Assembly: GCA_016839605.1 (NCBI GenBank)
Contig: JAEOTX010000029.1
Span: forward strand, 1 to 33,043
Direction of reading: 5' to 3'
Source: Candidatus Thorarchaeota archaeon
GTDB taxonomy: Archaea > Asgardarchaeota > Thorarchaeia > Thorarchaeales > Thorarchaeaceae
Length of the DNA: 33,043 nucleotides
In this document: positions 1,821 to 20,525 of the stretch, in pieces
How the letters are laid out: every line of letters begins with the position of its first letter
Position numbering within the stretch: position 1 is the first letter of the stretch
Notes under the pieces: model-generated
What the model was told of the DNA's origin: nothing
Database searches by the model: none
Seen by the model: the letters and a program-made list of their open reading frames with translations, nothing else
Made by a program: the position numbers and the translations under genes

Positions 1821-3359
1821 ATGGCAGAACAAAGTACTATAATGAATCAACAGACAGAGGACTATTCGCTTGATGAGCAGAAGAAGAGACCTTGGCATGT
1901 AAAACTAGTTTCATATGGCTCATTCATCCTTCTCTCTCTAGTGCTTCTGATTTTCATCGATTTGGTCACGGGAGCTTTGGGAACATCCATCACAATAGGC
2001 ATTCTAGAAATGGAGACTGCTGAAAGCGAGAGCATTGTCCTCTTTATGCGTGTTTCAGGCATGATTCTCTTGGGTTTGTCTCTAATAGTTGGCAGGTTCA
2101 GATTTGCAGTCTATGAAAGAAGGAATGGTCGAATGCTGCAAGACCTGCTTGTGATAGGAATACTTCTTGGCGTATTCTTTGCGGTTAACCTTGGTATTGG
2201 GATTCTTGCAGTTTTCTTCGTGTTCTTTTGGGATCCCAAGTTTGCGGAGCAATGGCAGGATAGAACACTCAAGATCTATAGATTTGTGATATCTGGGAGT
2301 GTTCTAATCTGGTTTTCACTGGAAGCATTTCTGTCTGAAGGATGGATTGGTACTACACTTCTGCCGAGAGTTCTCACACGTTCATTATCAGACATAATGA
2401 TGGGTAGTGGCTGGGAACCATTGACATTCTGCGTCGTAGTTCTCATCATGACCTCCTATCTGTTGCTGCCAAAGGCGTTCTATGCACTCTGGGGTTTCAG
2501 GAAGAACATCGAGTCCTTCTGGAGAGAATTCGTCTATGAACCAATGGGACTTGTAGGGCTCTTTGTTATAGGTGCAATTGTGCTTATTGCAGTATTTGCG
2601 CCCTTTATTGCCACACATCACTGGGGGGAGGGATCTTGGGTGTTGGAAGACCTATTAGCGCCGCCAAGTGCTGAACACTGGATGGGCACCAATCACAACG
2701 GGCAAGACATATTCAGTCGGATAGTTTATGGTGCACAAATATCACTGCTCGTTGGTTTCTTAGCAGCAATCATCGCTGTGGCAATAGGTACAACTGTGGG
2801 CCTCATTTCAGGTTACTTTGGTGGTTTCACCGACACAATTCTCATGAGAATTACTGATCTCTTCCTCAGTCTGCCGACGCTACCATTGATGATGATCATG
2901 CTTGCATTGTTCGGGCGAGGACTGCAAAATGTTATCATTGTGATAGCAATATTAGGGTGGACTGGGACCGCTCGAATGGTTCGAAGTGAAGCGCTATCTC
3001 TACGTGAGAGACCTCTCACAGAGGCTGCACATGCACTTGGTGCAAATGACTTGTACATCCTATTTAGACACATCTTCCCCAATACACTGCCTCTCGTTCT
3101 AGCTAATATGATCCTGGGAGTAGTGAACGCCATCTTATCTGAGGCAGGCATTGCATTCCTTGGGTTCGTAGACATACATGGACAGCCATCTTGGGGCATA
3201 ATTCTACACTGGGCATCCAACAATGGTGCTCTATTGAATAACATGTGGTGGTGGATCGTGCCGCCTGGCCTCCTCATCATGTTAACAGCACTCGGTTTCG
3301 TCTTCGTCAGTCATGCTGCTGACAAAGTCGTGAACCCAAGACTGAGAGGGAGGAGATAG
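1821..3359 (+). CDS. dppC: Peptide ABC transporter permease, DppC/OppC type, with N-terminal membrane extension
   Basis: At 512 residues this is much longer than the usual ~300 for DppC. The C-terminal ~285 residues are a normal DppC core: a first helix near 240-262, the MGTNHNGQDIFSR segment after the large extracellular loop, a coupling loop EAAHALGANDLYILFRHIFP, and the closing NPRLRGRR. The first ~230 residues add about five more hydrophobic helices (around 28-50, 72-92, 108-136, 152-170 and 195-220) that are not part of the canonical permease. The start ATG has a strong AGGAGGGAG site 8 nt upstream. It is translationally close to the dppB-type gene before it and the ATPase gene after it (1 nt gap). 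The role of the extension is unknown; the second importer in this window also has an extended DppC. Confidence 0.92.
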   Translation: MAEQSTIMNQQTEDYSLDEQKKRPWHVKLVSYGSFILLSLVLLIFIDLVTGALGTSITIGILEMETAESESIVLFMRVSGMILLGLSLIVGRFRFAVYERRNGRMLQDLLVIGILLGVFFAVNLGIGILAVFFVFFWDPKFAEQWQDRTLKIYRFVISGSVLIWFSLEAFLSEGWIGTTLLPRVLTRSLSDIMMGSGWEPLTFCVVVLIMTSYLLLPKAFYALWGFRKNIESFWREFVYEPMGLVGLFVIGAIVLIAVFAPFIATHHWGEGSWVLEDLLAPPSAEHWMGTNHNGQDIFSRIVYGAQISLLVGFLAAIIAVAIGTTVGLISGYFGGFTDTILMRITDLFLSLPTLPLMMIMLALFGRGLQNVIIVIAILGWTGTARMVRSEALSLRERPLTEAAHALGANDLYILFRHIFPNTLPLVLANMILGVVNAILSEAGIAFLGFVDIHGQPSWGIILHWASNNGALLNNMWWWIVPPGLLIMLTALGFVFVSHAADKVVNPRLRGRR

Positions 3360-3360
3360 A

Positions 3361-4338
3361 ATGGCAATACTCGAGGTGGAGAACCTAAAGACGCATTATT
3401 ACATTGGAGACAAACCAGTTTACGCCGTTGACGACGTGTCTTTCACCATTGACAGGAATGAAACACTTGGACTTGCTGGTGAGTCAGGATGCGGGAAGAC
3501 CACAACAGCTTACAGTATCCTGCGTATCCTTCCAGCTAACGGGAAAATTGTGGAAGGTAGCGTCAAGCTTGATGGTGAGGATCTGGTAACGAAATCAATG
3601 GAAGAGATGAGGAAGATTCGCTGGAAGAAGGCCTCAATCGTATTTCAATATGCAATGAACGCCTTCAACCCGGTGCTAAGGATAGGTCGACAAATCGTAG
3701 AAGTCATACAAGAAAAGGAGGGCGGCAGTGAGCAAGCAGCTGCACTGACTGTAGCTGGATTGTTCGAGGAGGTTGGACTAGAGCCAAGTCGAATCGATGA
3801 CTATCCTCACGAGTTCAGCGGAGGAATGCTTCAGAGAGCTATCATTGCTCAGGCGTTATCATGTGATCCAAGACTTATCATTGCAGACGAGCCGGTCACG
3901 GCGCTTGACGTCATCGTGCAGAATAAGATTCTCGACCTTCTCCGAAAACTCCAAGCCAAGTACAATTTGGCTGTGCTATTCATCACTCACGACCTCTCTG
4001 TTGTTGCTGAGAATTGCACACAAGTGGGAATCATGTATGCAGGAAACCTGATGGAGCTGGGTTCTGCAACTTCAGTATTCAAGGAGTCGTTGCACCCCTA
4101 TACATACAAGCTAATCGGTGCTTTTCCAAGCGTTACAGGGCCCAAGCGGAGACTGGAGTTCATTCCAGGCACTCCACCAAACCTGATGAAACCGCCACCA
4201 GGGTGCACGTTTCATCCCAGATGCCCGTACGCACAGGACATATGCAGTAAGGAACTGCCGAAATTCGAAGAGATCAGCAATGGCCACTATGCAAGATGTC
4301 ATTTTGCTGGGCAGCTAGAATTTGGAGGAGAAGAATAA
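3361..4338 (+). CDS. dppD: Peptide ABC transporter ATP-binding protein, DppD/OppD type
   Basis: A 325-residue nucleotide-binding subunit that energises peptide import from the cytoplasmic face. Walker A is GESGCGKT (about 40-47), the signature is FSGGM, Walker B is LIIADEP and the H-loop is ITHDL, so it should be a competent ATPase. The C-terminal OppD/DppD extension is present, with GCTFHPRC followed by two more cysteines, the four-Cys pattern that binds an iron-sulfur cluster in some OppD proteins. The start follows a GGAGGAG site, and the stop overlaps the next start (TAATG), indicating translational coupling with the partner ATPase. Confidence 0.95.
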   Translation: MAILEVENLKTHYYIGDKPVYAVDDVSFTIDRNETLGLAGESGCGKTTTAYSILRILPANGKIVEGSVKLDGEDLVTKSMEEMRKIRWKKASIVFQYAMNAFNPVLRIGRQIVEVIQEKEGGSEQAAALTVAGLFEEVGLEPSRIDDYPHEFSGGMLQRAIIAQALSCDPRLIIADEPVTALDVIVQNKILDLLRKLQAKYNLAVLFITHDLSVVAENCTQVGIMYAGNLMELGSATSVFKESLHPYTYKLIGAFPSVTGPKRRLEFIPGTPPNLMKPPPGCTFHPRCPYAQDICSKELPKFEEISNGHYARCHFAGQLEFGGEE

Positions 4339-14198: not shown

Positions 14199-15326
14199 AT
14201 GCCAGAGGACACCGAAGAGTACGTGCTGAAGGTAGAGAGCTTGAAGGCCTTCTATACTTCGAAGAAAGGACTTGTTAAGGCAGTGAATGACATCAGCTTT
14301 GGCATTCGCAAGGGAGAGTCAGTTGGTCTCTTCGGAGAGTCAGGAGCAGGTAAGACATCTGTGGCATTAGCAATCATGGGGATATTCGACGAGCTTTCAA
14401 GATACTATGCATCAACATCAAGTGAGCCTGACAATAAGAAACTCTGGGAAAAGAGAGATGAAGCTAGAAAGAAAGGACTCGCATCTGAAGACTTGGGAAT
14501 GGAACTCCCCGGAGTCGAAGGAAGAATATTGTTCAAGGGGAAAGACCTGCTGACACTTGATGACAAGGAATATCGGAAAATTCGGGGAATGGAAATAACC
14601 TATGTCCCTCAAGGAACAATCAGGTCCCTCAATCCGTACACCCAGATAGGCCTGCAGACTGCAGAAGCTTTGTGGTCTCATGACGAAGATAATCTCTTGA
14701 TAGAGCGGGAAGTTCTTCGCAAGGTTCTGGAAACTCTTGACCTAGTTGAGATTGGCGATTCCGATCTGCGTCAGTTCATGAAACCAGCCGAGTTCTCGAT
14801 GGGTGAAGATCAGCGTATACTACTCGCAATGGCTCTAATCTCTGACCCAAGTCTAATGATAACAGATGAACCCACTACTGCAGTTGACGTCGGTGTACAA
14901 CGAAGGATTCTGGATGCAATCGAAATAGTGAGACGAGAACTTGATTTATCGTTACTACTCATCAGCAACGACCAAGGTCTTATTGCAGAGACCTCAGACC
15001 GAGTAGCGGTTATGAGTGCTGGACGAATCATGGAGTTTGGGACTGCAGAGAGAGTATTGACCTCTCCAGGGCATCCATTCACAAGGGCATTCATAATGAG
15101 TAATCCTAGCATGGAAATGATGCGTAAGATTCGAGAGAAGGGACTAAGGCTCAGAGGAATTCCTGGAAAACCCCCGGACTTAGCGAATCCACCATCTGGC
15201 TGTCCATTTCATCCTCGATGTGAATTTGCCGAAGGTATATGCAAGACAGATATTCCGGAGTATCGAGAAGTTGAGAAGGACTACTGGATATTCTGTCATC
15301 AATTTGAGGAGCTTCCTGACTGGTAG
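14199..15326 (+). CDS. Orphan OppD-like ABC ATPase with degenerate motifs
   Basis: 375 residues from ATG 14199; an ATG at 14121 would add 26 residues of no family character. Walker A (GESGAGKT, 46-53), the Q-loop (VPQG, Q138) and Walker B (LMITDE, D223/E224) are intact. The signature, however, is FSMGED rather than LSGGQ, and the H-loop reads LISNDQ, with Asn257 in place of the switch histidine. The OppD-type C-terminal four-cysteine tail (C335, C341, C348, C366) is kept. An extra segment of about 40 residues separates Walker A from the Q-loop and is shared in position with the ATPase at 19422. No permease or binding protein is adjacent. It may pair with the 19422 protein as the inactive half of a heterodimer. 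Its 3' end overlaps the convergent 7-TM gene by 28 nt. Confidence 0.9.
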   Translation: MPEDTEEYVLKVESLKAFYTSKKGLVKAVNDISFGIRKGESVGLFGESGAGKTSVALAIMGIFDELSRYYASTSSEPDNKKLWEKRDEARKKGLASEDLGMELPGVEGRILFKGKDLLTLDDKEYRKIRGMEITYVPQGTIRSLNPYTQIGLQTAEALWSHDEDNLLIEREVLRKVLETLDLVEIGDSDLRQFMKPAEFSMGEDQRILLAMALISDPSLMITDEPTTAVDVGVQRRILDAIEIVRRELDLSLLLISNDQGLIAETSDRVAVMSAGRIMEFGTAERVLTSPGHPFTRAFIMSNPSMEMMRKIREKGLRLRGIPGKPPDLANPPSGCPFHPRCEFAEGICKTDIPEYREVEKDYWIFCHQFEELPDW

Positions 15327-16378
15327 GATTCGAATATGGAAGACACCAGTTCATTGGCAGAGCTGAATTCCCTCAAGGTTCCTTCGAAATTCTGGATTAT
15401 CATCCCAAACATGGTCTCAAAGTCAGCGGTGAATTCCTTCAGTTTTGCTAGAAGAACGGTGTAAGGTTGCCGCGAAATTAGCACGGATGTGAATGTGAGA
15501 CTATGAGCGAATAATATGGAAAAATCACCAACTGATACTATGTTCAGTCCAGTATCGCTGCGAGTTATTTCTTGAAATAGCGATTGCACTCCAGATATCC
15601 CCGCTGCAGTCAGGACCTGATCGATCTCTGCGTTCTCCTCAAACTCATGATGATAAACAAGGAGCCCTCCCTCCTGAATGATGTAGAGCTCCACCAATTG
15701 TTGCATCCAGTCTAGCTCATCTAGAGTAGGAGTGTATATCAGGCCAACACCAAAGCCCGTAATCCCAACTACAAGAAGCACTTCACCTACTAAGTACAAT
15801 GGTACTCCGAAAGAGTAGTATACCATGTCGCTGGCAAAAACAAATCCAAAGTAGCCAACAAGAAATGTTGCAACGATTCGTTCAACGTTCTTCTTGAGCT
15901 CGCCCGTTGTGCTCTTCCTTGTATAGTTTAGGAACAGCATCACACCAGGTAGAGTGATTAATGCAATTGACACAGCCACAAGATCCAACCAAACTCGTGG
16001 AATCGCTATAGCCAGGAGAACATGAACTAGCCCCGCCAGGAAGAAGAGATGTTTTGTGTCATAAGGAAGGATTTCCTCTATAGCGTAGAAGAAGGCGCTA
16101 AGAGCAAGTATCATGCCGATGTATCCAAGCTTGGTCAGGATGGTATTCATTGGTTCTGCTGCATAGTAGAAATCTGCTAATATGAATGAGCCTCGATTGA
16201 CCATCATGCCGAAGAAGAATGTTGCCCAAGCAACCCGGACATCCACAATCCTGCGAAACTGATGGGTATGCCACTGACGTAGCAGAACTGCTCCGAGAAG
16301 AATCGAGTAGAATACAACTGCGCTATCCAAGACTAAGCTGAGGTCTCTTACAACATCACCCGGAGGAAATACTGGCAG
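15299..16378 (-). CDS. Seven-TM protein with C-terminal longin-like domain (paralog 1)
   Basis: 359 residues if started at CTG 16378. Seven hydrophobic helices (about 18-35, 46-66, 80-100, 109-127, 130-151, 167-188, 191-214) are followed by a soluble domain (about 228-350). Its apparent order is beta-beta-helix-beta-beta-beta-helix-helix: VELYIIQEGGLLVYHHEF, a Q-rich helix, three strands ending SVLISR, then a long helix with FETMFG and FEGTLREF. This order is that of longin domains. The nearest ordinary start is TTG 16330, but the 16 residues before it align without gaps to the neighbouring paralog, and a TAA two codons before the CTG limits the start. The function is unknown; a membrane receptor or vesicle-type adaptor is conceivable. 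The longin assignment is from pattern only. Confidence 0.75.
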   Translation of the reverse strand: MPVFPPGDVVRDLSLVLDSAVVFYSILLGAVLLRQWHTHQFRRIVDVRVAWATFFFGMMVNRGSFILADFYYAAEPMNTILTKLGYIGMILALSAFFYAIEEILPYDTKHLFFLAGLVHVLLAIAIPRVWLDLVAVSIALITLPGVMLFLNYTRKSTTGELKKNVERIVATFLVGYFGFVFASDMVYYSFGVPLYLVGEVLLVVGITGFGVGLIYTPTLDELDWMQQLVELYIIQEGGLLVYHHEFEENAEIDQVLTAAGISGVQSLFQEITRSDTGLNIVSVGDFSILFAHSLTFTSVLISRQPYTVLLAKLKEFTADFETMFGMIIQNFEGTLREFSSANELVSSIFESYQSGSSSN

Positions 16379-16392
16379 CTGTTATGCACCCC
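16376..16392 (-). promoter_or_regulatory. Shine-Dalgarno-like GGGGTG and CTG start of paralog 1
   Basis: On the minus strand GGGGTG (16392-16387) is followed by exactly 8 nt and then CTG (16378-16376). An in-frame TAA lies two codons upstream of the CTG, and no ATG, GTG or TTG occurs in frame until 16330. The paralog at 17503 has the same arrangement. A TATA-like ATTATAG (16410-16404) is also present, so a near-leaderless transcript starting around 16381 is an alternative. Confidence 0.55.
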
Positions 16393-16453
16393 TTTTGGCC
16401 ACACTATAATGCCATTTGCGAAGGCTACTTTTTAGTGAAGCTTGGATGAACGA

Positions 16454-17503
16454 CTAGAATACAGACGAAACAAGCTCGTGAACGGAGCTGAAGTCACGAA
16501 GGCTCCCCTCGAATCTCTCGATAATGGGCCCGAAAATAATGTCGAACTTGTCAGTGAACTCTTGTACCTTGGACAGCAAAATGTGGTAAGCCTTCCGTGA
16601 GATGAGAACCGCGGAGAAACAACCGCCATGAGCAAAGAGAATCTCATAGTTGCCAATTGAAACCACGTTGAGTCCCTGTTCACTTCTAGTAATTTCTTGA
16701 AAGAGTGACTGAACACCGGAGATACCAGCAGCTGTTAGGACCTGGTCGATGTCCAGATCTTCTTCAAAGTGGTGATGAAAAACTAGCAATCCACCGTCTT
16801 GGATGATATATAACTCCACTAATTGATGGCGCCAGTCAAGCTCGTCAAGGGCAGGTGACATAATTAGGGCATAGCCAAACACCATGAGTCCTACCACCAT
16901 TAGTGCAGCGCCGAAAGCGTAGATTAGCTCCCCTAAGGAATAGTAAGAGATATCACTCCTTCCAAGAAAGCCTACAAATCCAATCAGAAATCCAGCCACA
17001 ATCTGCCCTATGCTTCTCCGAACTGCACCACTTGTATTTCGTATCGAATAAGTCAGGAAGATCATCACTCCGATTAGGGTAACAAGTGAGATAATTAGGG
17101 CAACAATCTCAATGTATTGCCGAGGGGATATCAGGGTTAGGGCTGCGCCAGCTAGGCCTGTCAGGGAGAAGCCATTGTAGAGCTGGTAAGGAAGCATTCT
17201 CTCTATTGTTGAAAAGAAAGCAACCAGTGCAAGAATCAGGCACATATAGCCAATCTTGACCCAAAAAGTGTTCATCGGCTCTCCCACATAAAGAAAGTCC
17301 GCAAGCATGAAGGCAGATGTGTTGCCCACCATTCCTATGAAGAAAAGCCCCCATGCAAGTTTGACATCCACTGGTTTTCGGAAGGGGCTCCTGTACCATT
17401 GACCAAGTAAGACGATGCCTAGGAGAAATGAGTAGAACACCACTGCTCCATCTAAAAGTAAAATAACGTCACGAATGATATCACCCTGCGGAAACTGTGG
17501 CAG
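16454..17503 (-). CDS. Seven-TM protein with C-terminal longin-like domain (paralog 2)
   Basis: 349 residues if started at CTG 17503. It is a close paralog of the next gene downstream, with the same seven-helix N-terminal part and the same C-terminal domain: LVELYIIQDGGLLVFHHHFE, then the shared block VLTAAGISGVQSLFQEITRS, then SAVLISRKAYHILLSK and FEGSLRDFSS. The shared block is nearly identical between the two, pointing to the soluble domain as the functional interface. The nearest ordinary start is GTG 17443, but the 20 upstream residues are conserved with the paralog (LPxFPxGDxxRDxxLxLD). A TATA-like TATTAAG at 17554-17560 fits a leader of about 27 nt. 75 nt separate the two genes, so co-transcription and dimer formation are plausible. 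No function is known. Confidence 0.75.
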   Translation of the reverse strand: MPQFPQGDIIRDVILLLDGAVVFYSFLLGIVLLGQWYRSPFRKPVDVKLAWGLFFIGMVGNTSAFMLADFLYVGEPMNTFWVKIGYMCLILALVAFFSTIERMLPYQLYNGFSLTGLAGAALTLISPRQYIEIVALIISLVTLIGVMIFLTYSIRNTSGAVRRSIGQIVAGFLIGFVGFLGRSDISYYSLGELIYAFGAALMVVGLMVFGYALIMSPALDELDWRHQLVELYIIQDGGLLVFHHHFEEDLDIDQVLTAAGISGVQSLFQEITRSEQGLNVVSIGNYEILFAHGGCFSAVLISRKAYHILLSKVQEFTDKFDIIFGPIIERFEGSLRDFSSVHELVSSVF

Positions 17504-17517
17504 TTGCTTAACACTCC
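17501..17517 (-). promoter_or_regulatory. Shine-Dalgarno-like GGAGTG and CTG start of paralog 2
   Basis: On the minus strand GGAGTG (17517-17512) is followed by 8 nt and then CTG (17503-17501), the same spacing as in the paralog. An in-frame TGA lies nine codons upstream of the CTG. Between the two only GAC, CAA, ATA, CGG, AGT, GTT, AAG and CAA occur. Confidence 0.55.
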
Positions 17518-17535
17518 GTATTTGGTCTCATCTTC

Positions 17536-17561
17536 AGAGTGTTTCTTCGCACTCTTAATAG
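17536..17561 (-). promoter_or_regulatory. TATA element and hairpin upstream of the 7-TM/longin-like pair
   Basis: A TATA-like TATTAAG (17554-17560, minus strand) overlaps the edge of a 6-bp inverted repeat AGAGTG/CACTCT (17536-17541 with 17550-17555). The expected transcript start is near 17530. The inverted repeat placed across the core promoter could be an operator; this is inference from position only. Confidence 0.4.
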
Positions 17562-17588
17562 TAAATCTTGGATGAAGAATCGAAGGAC

Positions 17589-19421: not shown

Positions 19422-20525
19422 TTGGTGAATCCATTGCCAAAGGGTGACAAGCTCCTAATCGTGGAGAACCTCAGAGCATACTATCCTTCGTCTAAGGGAT
19501 TGGTGAGAGCTGTTGACGATGTCTCACTCGAGATTCGGGAGGGAGAGTCAATGGGACTCCTTGGAGAAAGCGGATGCGGTAAGAGCTCACTAGCCCTAGC
19601 GCTAATGGGTCTCTTCGAGAGAGTTGCTCGGTTCCAAGCAGGAGCATCGAACGACCCGACACTCCTGAAGCAGTTCAAAGCAGGAGATAAAGCTCCAGTA
19701 GAAGACAGACCGGGAGTACAGGGCAAGGTGATATTTAGAGGAAAGGTCCTGACGTCCATGACCCAAGAGGAGCTTGTTGAGATACGAGGAAAAGAAATCT
19801 CGTTGATTCCTCAGGGCCTAACCCATGCTCTCAATCCTCAGCACAGCATTGGCCATCAGACAGCGGAGCCCATCGATATTCACGAAGATGATGCGCGTCT
19901 TATTGATATGAAGCGCAGAGTTCTCGAGTACCTTGGACTCGTCCGTCTGGCGGATGCTGGCATTCGGTACGTCCTTGATCCCGGAAGCTTCTCGGGTGGA
20001 GAGAGTCAAAGAGTGCTGATTGCTATGTCACTCATTGCGGGTCCATATCTTGTGATAGCCGATGAGCCGACGTCTGCACTTGATGTGACCATCCAACGCC
20101 AGATTATGGAGGTGCTAAGGATGGTCAAAGAAGAATTCGATGTTTCCACGCTTCTGATCAGTCATGATGCAGGGGTCATTGCAGAGCTAGCTGACCGCGT
20201 CGCAGTCATGTATGCAGGAAAAATCCAAGAGTATGGCGAAGCAGTCCAGATGTTCCACCACCCAAGCCATCCATATACTATGGGACTTATGGCATCATTC
20301 CCGACAATCGCAATGATGCGCATGAAGGCAGGAGGAAAGAGACCTCGATTGAGAGGAATAAGAGGGGATCCGCCCGATCTGACAGACCTGCCATCTGGGT
20401 GTGCTTTTCATCCAAGGTGTGACTACTGCATTGATATATGTAAAACTGAAACTCCGGAGTATAGAGAAGTAGAACCCAGGCATTTTGTACGATGTCATAG
20501 GTGGGGAGAGATTAAGCAAGAATGA
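19422..20525 (+). CDS. Orphan OppD-like ABC ATPase, intact motifs
   Basis: 367 residues from TTG 19422 (GTG 19425 is equally possible). Unlike its relative at 14199, all motifs are complete: GESGCGKS, FSGGESQ, Walker B LVIADEP, and H-loop LISHDA. It shares with that relative an insertion of about 40 residues between Walker A and the Q-loop (IPQG), including a similar (V/I)xGxxxFRGK strand just before the Q-loop. It also shares the OppD C-terminal tail with four cysteines (GCAFHPRC ... C ... C). No permease or binding protein gene is adjacent. A heterodimer with the 14199 product is a reasonable guess, serving permeases encoded elsewhere. The minus-strand block between the two ATPases carries the 7-TM/longin-like, DinB and DUF362 genes. 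Confidence 0.92.
   Translation: MVNPLPKGDKLLIVENLRAYYPSSKGLVRAVDDVSLEIREGESMGLLGESGCGKSSLALALMGLFERVARFQAGASNDPTLLKQFKAGDKAPVEDRPGVQGKVIFRGKVLTSMTQEELVEIRGKEISLIPQGLTHALNPQHSIGHQTAEPIDIHEDDARLIDMKRRVLEYLGLVRLADAGIRYVLDPGSFSGGESQRVLIAMSLIAGPYLVIADEPTSALDVTIQRQIMEVLRMVKEEFDVSTLLISHDAGVIAELADRVAVMYAGKIQEYGEAVQMFHHPSHPYTMGLMASFPTIAMMRMKAGGKRPRLRGIRGDPPDLTDLPSGCAFHPRCDYCIDICKTETPEYREVEPRHFVRCHRWGEIKQE

What the first reader, a model, noticed from the sequence alone, without database searches (positions are those of the whole stretch)
16376..17517. Two tandem paralogs both appear to start translation at CTG
In both 7-TM/longin-like genes the sequence upstream of the first TTG (16330) or GTG (17443) is conserved as protein: LPxFPxGDxxRDxxLxLD aligns without gaps, with changes that keep the amino-acid class. 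Both aligned stretches begin at CTG, each with a Shine-Dalgarno-like GGGGTG or GGAGTG exactly 8 nt before it. In-frame stops (TAA two codons, TGA nine codons upstream) rule out earlier ordinary starts. Leucine-codon initiation is rarely documented in archaea; seeing it twice in duplicated genes suggests a fixed, perhaps regulatory, weak start.
Basis: seen in the sequence. Interest (0 to 1): 0.7.

Follow-up and report, generated by a model that had tools for sequence, protein, structure and literature searches.

The report
Conserved CTG start codons in Thorarchaeota
Two neighbouring membrane-protein genes in an uncultured Asgard archaeon almost certainly begin with the rare start codon CTG; three relatives keep it and most others have an ordinary start codon at the same spot, so standard gene finders mis-annotate these genes and Asgard ribosomes evidently accept CTG.

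Summary
The window is from a Candidatus Thorarchaeota genome. Of 33 homologs with a readable N-terminus, 29 have NTG at the codon aligned to the window's CTGs (14 ATG, 7 TTG, 3 GTG, 5 CTG) and the other four have ATG one codon later. The five CTG genes lie in four separately assembled genomes. Codons 2-16, upstream of any ATG/GTG/TTG, evolve under amino-acid constraint (pN/pS 0.30 in frame, about 1 upstream of CTG). All five CTGs have a G[AG][AG]GTG Shine-Dalgarno-like motif 5 or 8 nt before them. The closest relative of gene A (73% identity, same neighbourhood) has ATG exactly there. Two corrections. The duplication is old, so the pair is not a recent copy. CTG starts are rare here (about 5 of 586 sampled ORFs) but not confined to this family: two other genes of a same-genus genome look CTG-initiated. 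The 'regulatory weak start' idea is neither shown nor excluded: a family-specific upstream element is compatible with it but also precedes ATG and TTG members. CUG initiation is a known kind; I found no archaeal record of a conserved case.

The parts
15299..16378 (-). Gene A: 7-TM plus longin-like protein, 359 aa if started at CTG 16378
   Evidence: (open frame 15299..16381), alignment, model of paralog B
16376..16378 (-). CTG start codon of gene A
   Evidence: aligned with ATG of SMTZ1-45 (L037), CTG of L003 and start codons of all other homologs
16387..16392 (-). Shine-Dalgarno-like GGGGTG of gene A, 8 nt before CTG
   Evidence: same motif and spacing in L002 and L003
16382..16384 (-). in-frame TAA two codons before gene A's CTG
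16428..16446 (-). family-specific upstream element TCCAAGCTTCACTAAAAAG of gene A, about 58 nt before CTG (putative promoter or operator)
16454..17503 (-). Gene B: paralog of gene A, 349 aa if started at CTG 17503
   Evidence: model pLDDT 80.8
17501..17503 (-). CTG start codon of gene B
   Evidence: syntenic ortholog in G002 (L002/L035, CP070658.1) also has CTG
17512..17517 (-). Shine-Dalgarno-like GGAGTG of gene B, 8 nt before CTG
17528..17530 (-). in-frame TGA nine codons before gene B's CTG
17554..17572 (-). same upstream element, TCCAAGATTTACTATTAAG, of gene B, about 59 nt before CTG

Best explanation
Both genes are translated from CTG (CUG in mRNA). The likely mechanism is ordinary archaeal leadered initiation: a short 5' leader from a promoter about 57 nt upstream, 30S positioned by a Shine-Dalgarno pairing of the GRRGTG motif with the 16S 3' end, and initiator Met-tRNA accepted on CUG in spite of a first-position mismatch, so the protein starts with Met. 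SHOWN by sequence: the start position, and that no ATG/GTG/TTG is available there. INFERRED: Met as first residue, lower efficiency than AUG, and the leader's 5' end. In evolution the start codon drifted among ATG, GTG, TTG and CTG; CTG is held in most of the clade that contains A and B and appears separately in G019 beside TTG relatives.
For: Codon at the aligned position in 33 homologs: ATG 14, TTG 7, GTG 3, CTG 5, and ATG one codon later in 4. CTG genes come from four separately assembled genomes, so a base-calling error is very unlikely. Gene A has only CAG, CTG and nine non-start codons between an in-frame stop and the invariant R11-D12. Codons 2-16 show pN/pS 0.30 in frame, 0.83 and 3.81 out of frame, equal to the gene body, and about 1 upstream of CTG. 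SD-like motif G[AG][AG]GTG 8 nt (A, B, G002, G028) or 5 nt (G019) before every CTG. Orthology backed by conserved neighbours DUF362-DinB-[this gene]-ABC in many Thorarchaeota. Two other genes of G002 (gamma-glutamyltransferase-like L061:2097 and M20 peptidase-like L069:5866 minus) also lack any ATG/GTG/TTG near the N-terminus and have an SD-placed CTG within three codons of the orthologs' starts.
Against: No proteomics, ribosome profiling or transcript data exist. L003 (G028) also has an in-frame TTG two codons before its CTG, though only 2 nt after its GGGGTG. SD motifs are not enriched before CTG codons genome-wide in the G002 sample (1.2-1.6x with 4-5 base matches, against 3-8x for ATG/GTG/TTG), so CTG is a rare start, not a standard one.
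Confidence: 0.93

Rival explanations
1. Translation starts at the first ordinary start codon (TTG 16330, GTG 17443), and the conserved upstream stretch is chance or regulatory DNA.
For: This is what Prodigal-type annotation must give, because that program considers only ATG, GTG and TTG (PMC2848648).
Against: Upstream codons show amino-acid constraint in one frame only. Orthologs start with ATG at the CTG column. The truncation would remove R11 and D12, invariant in 22 homologs, and cut into the first predicted TM helix (residues 9-38).
Confidence: 0.03
2. The start is near CTG but at another non-standard codon, by stop readthrough or by frameshifting from a short upstream ORF.
For: Gene B has an out-of-frame ATG ORF (MRPNTEC, 17531-17508) that ends 4 nt before CTG. 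An ATC in a Ras-like GTPase of G002 suggests other odd starts may exist.
Against: The short ORF is not conserved: the other CTG genes lack it at this place. Stops and upstream lengths differ between the CTG genes, while CTG, its SD spacing and NTG alignment are shared.
Confidence: 0.03
3. CTG is a consensus or sequencing error for ATG or TTG in a metagenome assembly.
For: The sources are MAGs; some homologs carry frameshifts near the N-terminus (L012, L024).
Against: The same codon at the same column in five genes of four assemblies, including both copies in one genome.
Confidence: 0.01
4. CTG is a weak start kept by selection for low or regulated expression of this receptor-like protein (a refinement of the best explanation, not its opposite).
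For: Four of five members of the A/B clade keep CTG in spite of synonymous saturation. Start-codon identity is clustered on the tree (11 changes against 16.4 in shuffles, none of 200 as low). A family-specific element TCCAAGNTTNACTAAAAAG lies at a fixed distance upstream.
Against: SMTZ1-45 uses ATG in the closest ortholog. The upstream element also precedes ATG and TTG members, so it is not tied to CTG and may simply be the core promoter. Clustering also follows from slow drift.
Confidence: 0.25

Closest known systems
Non-AUG initiation in bacteria and archaea (GUG, UUG)
   Same: SD-led initiation by initiator tRNA on a codon with a first-position mismatch; alternation of NTG codons among orthologs, as here
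   Different: Reviews of archaeal initiation name only AUG, GUG and UUG (PMC7531240); here it is CUG
Rare CUG starts in prokaryotic genomes
   Same: CUG is listed by NCBI table 11; in 36 triplets of close genomes 2 of 61,358 ancestral AUG starts, 1 of 5,080 GUG and 1 of 2,468 UUG became CUG (PMC5622118)
   Different: Here CUG is found in 5 of 33 homologs and retained across genera, in an Asgard family
Asgard longin/roadblock-domain proteins; clathrin-adaptor sigma subunits, Mon1-Ccz1, TRAPP, MglB (fold of the C-terminal domain)
   Same: Best Foldseek hits of the model's C-terminal domain (E 1.4e-3 to 3e-2)
   Different: Fused to seven predicted TM helices; no Pfam family passes its cut-off; weak hits only, so the fold call is tentative

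Membership tests
CUG-initiated gene | CUG at the position where orthologs start | tested here: met
CUG-initiated gene | No ordinary start codon available in frame that would include the conserved N-terminus | tested here: met
   (strictest in gene A: stop two codons upstream)
CUG-initiated gene | Coding constraint begins at the CTG and not upstream | tested here: met
CUG-initiated gene | Ribosome binding site at a suitable distance | tested here: met
   the 16S 3' end of this genome was not read
CUG-initiated gene | Protein product begins at this codon (peptide or footprint) | not testable with these tools
   uncultured organism, no data held
Regulatory (selected) weak start | Start codon conserved beyond drift | tested here: inconclusive
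   clustered on the tree, but ATG in one close ortholog
Regulatory (selected) weak start | Changing CTG to ATG alters output or fitness | not testable with these tools
   needs an experiment
7-TM plus longin-fold protein | Seven TM helices | tested here: met
   model ma9ddaba6da4a, seven long helices 9-215; prediction only
7-TM plus longin-fold protein | Longin/roadblock fold at the C-terminus | tested here: inconclusive
   Foldseek best E 1.4e-3, none below 0.001; parts of this domain have pLDDT under 50

The most novel reading that the evidence does not exclude
Thorarchaeota use CUG as a working fourth start codon in a small set of genes, and in this 7-TM/longin family the CUG is maintained by selection as a built-in brake on translation, together with a gene-specific promoter element.
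Probability: 0.25. Interest if true: 0.65.

Novelty: new member of a known kind. Interest (0 to 1): 0.5.

Why it matters
It is strong comparative evidence for CUG initiation in archaea, in the lineage nearest to eukaryotes, where near-cognate CUG starts are well known. It shows that gene finders restricted to ATG/GTG/TTG truncate or miss real N-termini in Asgard genomes, and it gives exact, testable constructs for start-codon stringency of an Asgard-type initiation system.

Tried and rejected
A genome-wide SD test did not show CTG enrichment, so 'CTG is a common start here' was rejected. Short upstream ORF with reinitiation: present only in gene B, rejected. The upstream element as a general Thorarchaeota promoter: rejected, since ACTAAA is depleted upstream of other ORFs (2 seen, 10 expected) and exact element copies occur only upstream of these genes in G000 and G002. 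Pfam, PDB-sequence and Rfam searches gave no usable assignment. A larger family-wide search added no further Thorarchaeota CTG genes. Ten paper searches found no report of a CUG start in archaea in the held library, which lacks most subscription journals.

Full report
WHAT IS THERE. On the minus strand lie two adjacent homologous genes, B (17503..16454) and A (16378..15299), 57% identical. The genome is a Candidatus Thorarchaeota MAG: named relatives from the genome collection are nearly all Thorarchaeota.

START COLUMN. Homologs were found in 31 of 59 related genomes, more in the named collection, and the search was repeated over all 47 held genomes of the family. At the codon aligned to the window's CTGs I count, over 33 genes with a readable N-terminus: ATG 14 (L006, L008, L009 twice, L010, L011, L014, L017, L018, L021, L031, L034, L037, L038), TTG 7 (L005, L013, L025, L040, L042, L043, L049; L042 also has an ATG two codons earlier), GTG 3 (L007, L015, L026), CTG 5 (window A and B, L002, L003, L004), and ATG one codon later in 4 (L019, L020, L023, L032). 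L012 and L024 show ATG-CC at this place but in a shifted frame, probably assembly errors. So the column is the start codon, and five genes in four separately assembled genomes have CTG there.

CODING CONSTRAINT. Among A, B, G002, G028 and SMTZ1-45, codons 2-16 have pN/pS 0.30 in the CTG frame and 0.83 and 3.81 in the two others. Pairwise values for codons 2-16 (0.13-0.42) match those of codons 17-120 (0.23-0.47), while the nine codons before CTG give about 0.5 to 1.7. Substitution shows codon periodicity downstream of CTG (0.38, 0.15, 0.54 for positions 1-3) and none upstream (0.66, 0.59, 0.51). Translation therefore runs through codons 2-16. In gene A the only codons between the in-frame stop and the invariant R11-D12 are CAG CTG CCA GTA TTT CCT CCG GGT GAT GTT GTA, so a start other than ATG/GTG/TTG is required.

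RIBOSOME BINDING SITE AND LEADER. Each CTG has G[AG][AG]GTG before it, at 8 nt in A, B, G002 and G028 and 5 nt in G019. About 53-60 nt before the start of all members of the CTG- and TTG-rich clades lies a conserved element, (C)CAAG-N-TT-N-ACTAAAA; a related form precedes L006, L008 and L021. In the window it is matched only upstream of A and B (expected 0.10, found 2). In the whole G000 and G002 genomes exact copies occur only before these genes, and ACTAAA is depleted before other ORFs. It may be the core promoter or an operator; the first would place the 5' end some 30 nt before CTG, i.e. a leadered mRNA. That step is inference.

EVOLUTION. In the protein tree four CTG genes and the ATG gene of SMTZ1-45 form one group (96/96 support): A with SMTZ1-45 (100/98) and G028 (100/100), B and G002 outside that pair. 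The fifth CTG gene (G019) lies among TTG genes. Start codons are clustered on the tree (11 changes, 16.4 in shuffles, none of 200 as low). CTG was thus gained at least twice, or gained and lost, and it has outlived synonymous saturation within the A/B clade. The tandem copies are old; 'seen twice' is not one recent duplication. Neighbours DUF362, DinB-like and a convergent ABC ATPase are conserved around the gene in many genomes, and G002 has the syntenic ortholog with CTG.

HOW COMMON. In 341 ORFs from 400 kb of G002, three have CTG as the only plausible start: the family member, a gamma-glutamyltransferase-like gene (GGAGGT 9 nt before CTG; first NTG 30 codons inside the conserved domain) and an M20 peptidase-like gene (AGGTG 6 nt before CTG, directly after an upstream gene); their orthologs start within three codons of these places. 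In 245 ORFs from about 296 kb of G000 (window included) only A and B qualify. SD motifs are not enriched before CTG codons overall. So CTG is a rare but real start in this genus, against a background rich in TTG starts (33 of 97 SD-supported starts in G002, 20 of 85 in G000). By comparison, reconstructed switches to CUG in 36 prokaryote triplets were 2 in 61,358 from AUG, 1 in 5,080 from GUG and 1 in 2,468 from UUG (PMC5622118), a figure that annotation habits may depress.

PROTEIN. AlphaFold2 on the 22-sequence alignment (mean pLDDT 80.8, pTM 0.73) gives seven long helices (9-215) and a C-terminal alpha/beta domain. A start at 16330 or 17443 would cut into TM helix 1. A receptor-like protein with a cytosolic longin domain, perhaps acting with small GTPases, is a reasonable but untested guess.

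VERDICT. The start codon claim is well supported (0.93). The regulatory claim is open (0.25). Prodigal considers only ATG, GTG and TTG (PMC2848648), so such genes are systematically shortened. Novelty is moderate: CUG initiation is a known kind, and archaeal reviews name only AUG, GUG and UUG (PMC7531240).

Noticed in passing
L072 (G002:C1:2470001-2490000), minus strand near 19843; L133 (G000:C192:20001-40000), plus strand near 3110: SelD-like (selenophosphate synthetase) frames follow an in-frame stop and begin SCKV; in L072 the stop is TGA and the frame before it ends VTTHG, giving G-U-S-C-K, the usual selenocysteine motif of SelD. Suggests selenocysteine use in this genus.
   Followed up: partly
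L056 (G002:C1:390001-410000), minus strand near 16788; L102: A Ras-like GTPase frame has no ATG/GTG/TTG before the P-loop; an ATC preceded by GGGGGCATTCAAG aligns with the TTG start of L106 preceded by GGGGGATTCAAA. Either an AUC start or an assembly error.
   Followed up: partly
L061:2097 plus; L069:5866-5864 minus (G002): Two further probable CTG starts, in a gamma-glutamyltransferase-like and an M20 peptidase-like gene.
   Followed up: yes
window 17508-17531, minus strand: Seven-codon ATG ORF (MRPNTEC) out of frame, ending 4 nt before gene B's CTG; not conserved in the other CTG genes.
   Followed up: partly
window 16428-16446 and 17554-17572, minus strand: Conserved element TCCAAGNTTNACTAAAAAG, unique to this gene family in the genomes searched, at a fixed distance before the start codon in ATG, TTG and CTG members alike.
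   Followed up: yes
L037 (SMTZ1-45) 4098-4286: A fragment matching the last about 63 residues of the protein follows the intact gene, apparently the remnant of a second tandem copy.
   Followed up: no
L054 (G002:C1:130001-150000), plus strand near 16741: An in-frame TAG interrupts what looks like one open frame (VPADC*FVLEG); pseudogene, assembly error or recoding not decided.
   Followed up: no
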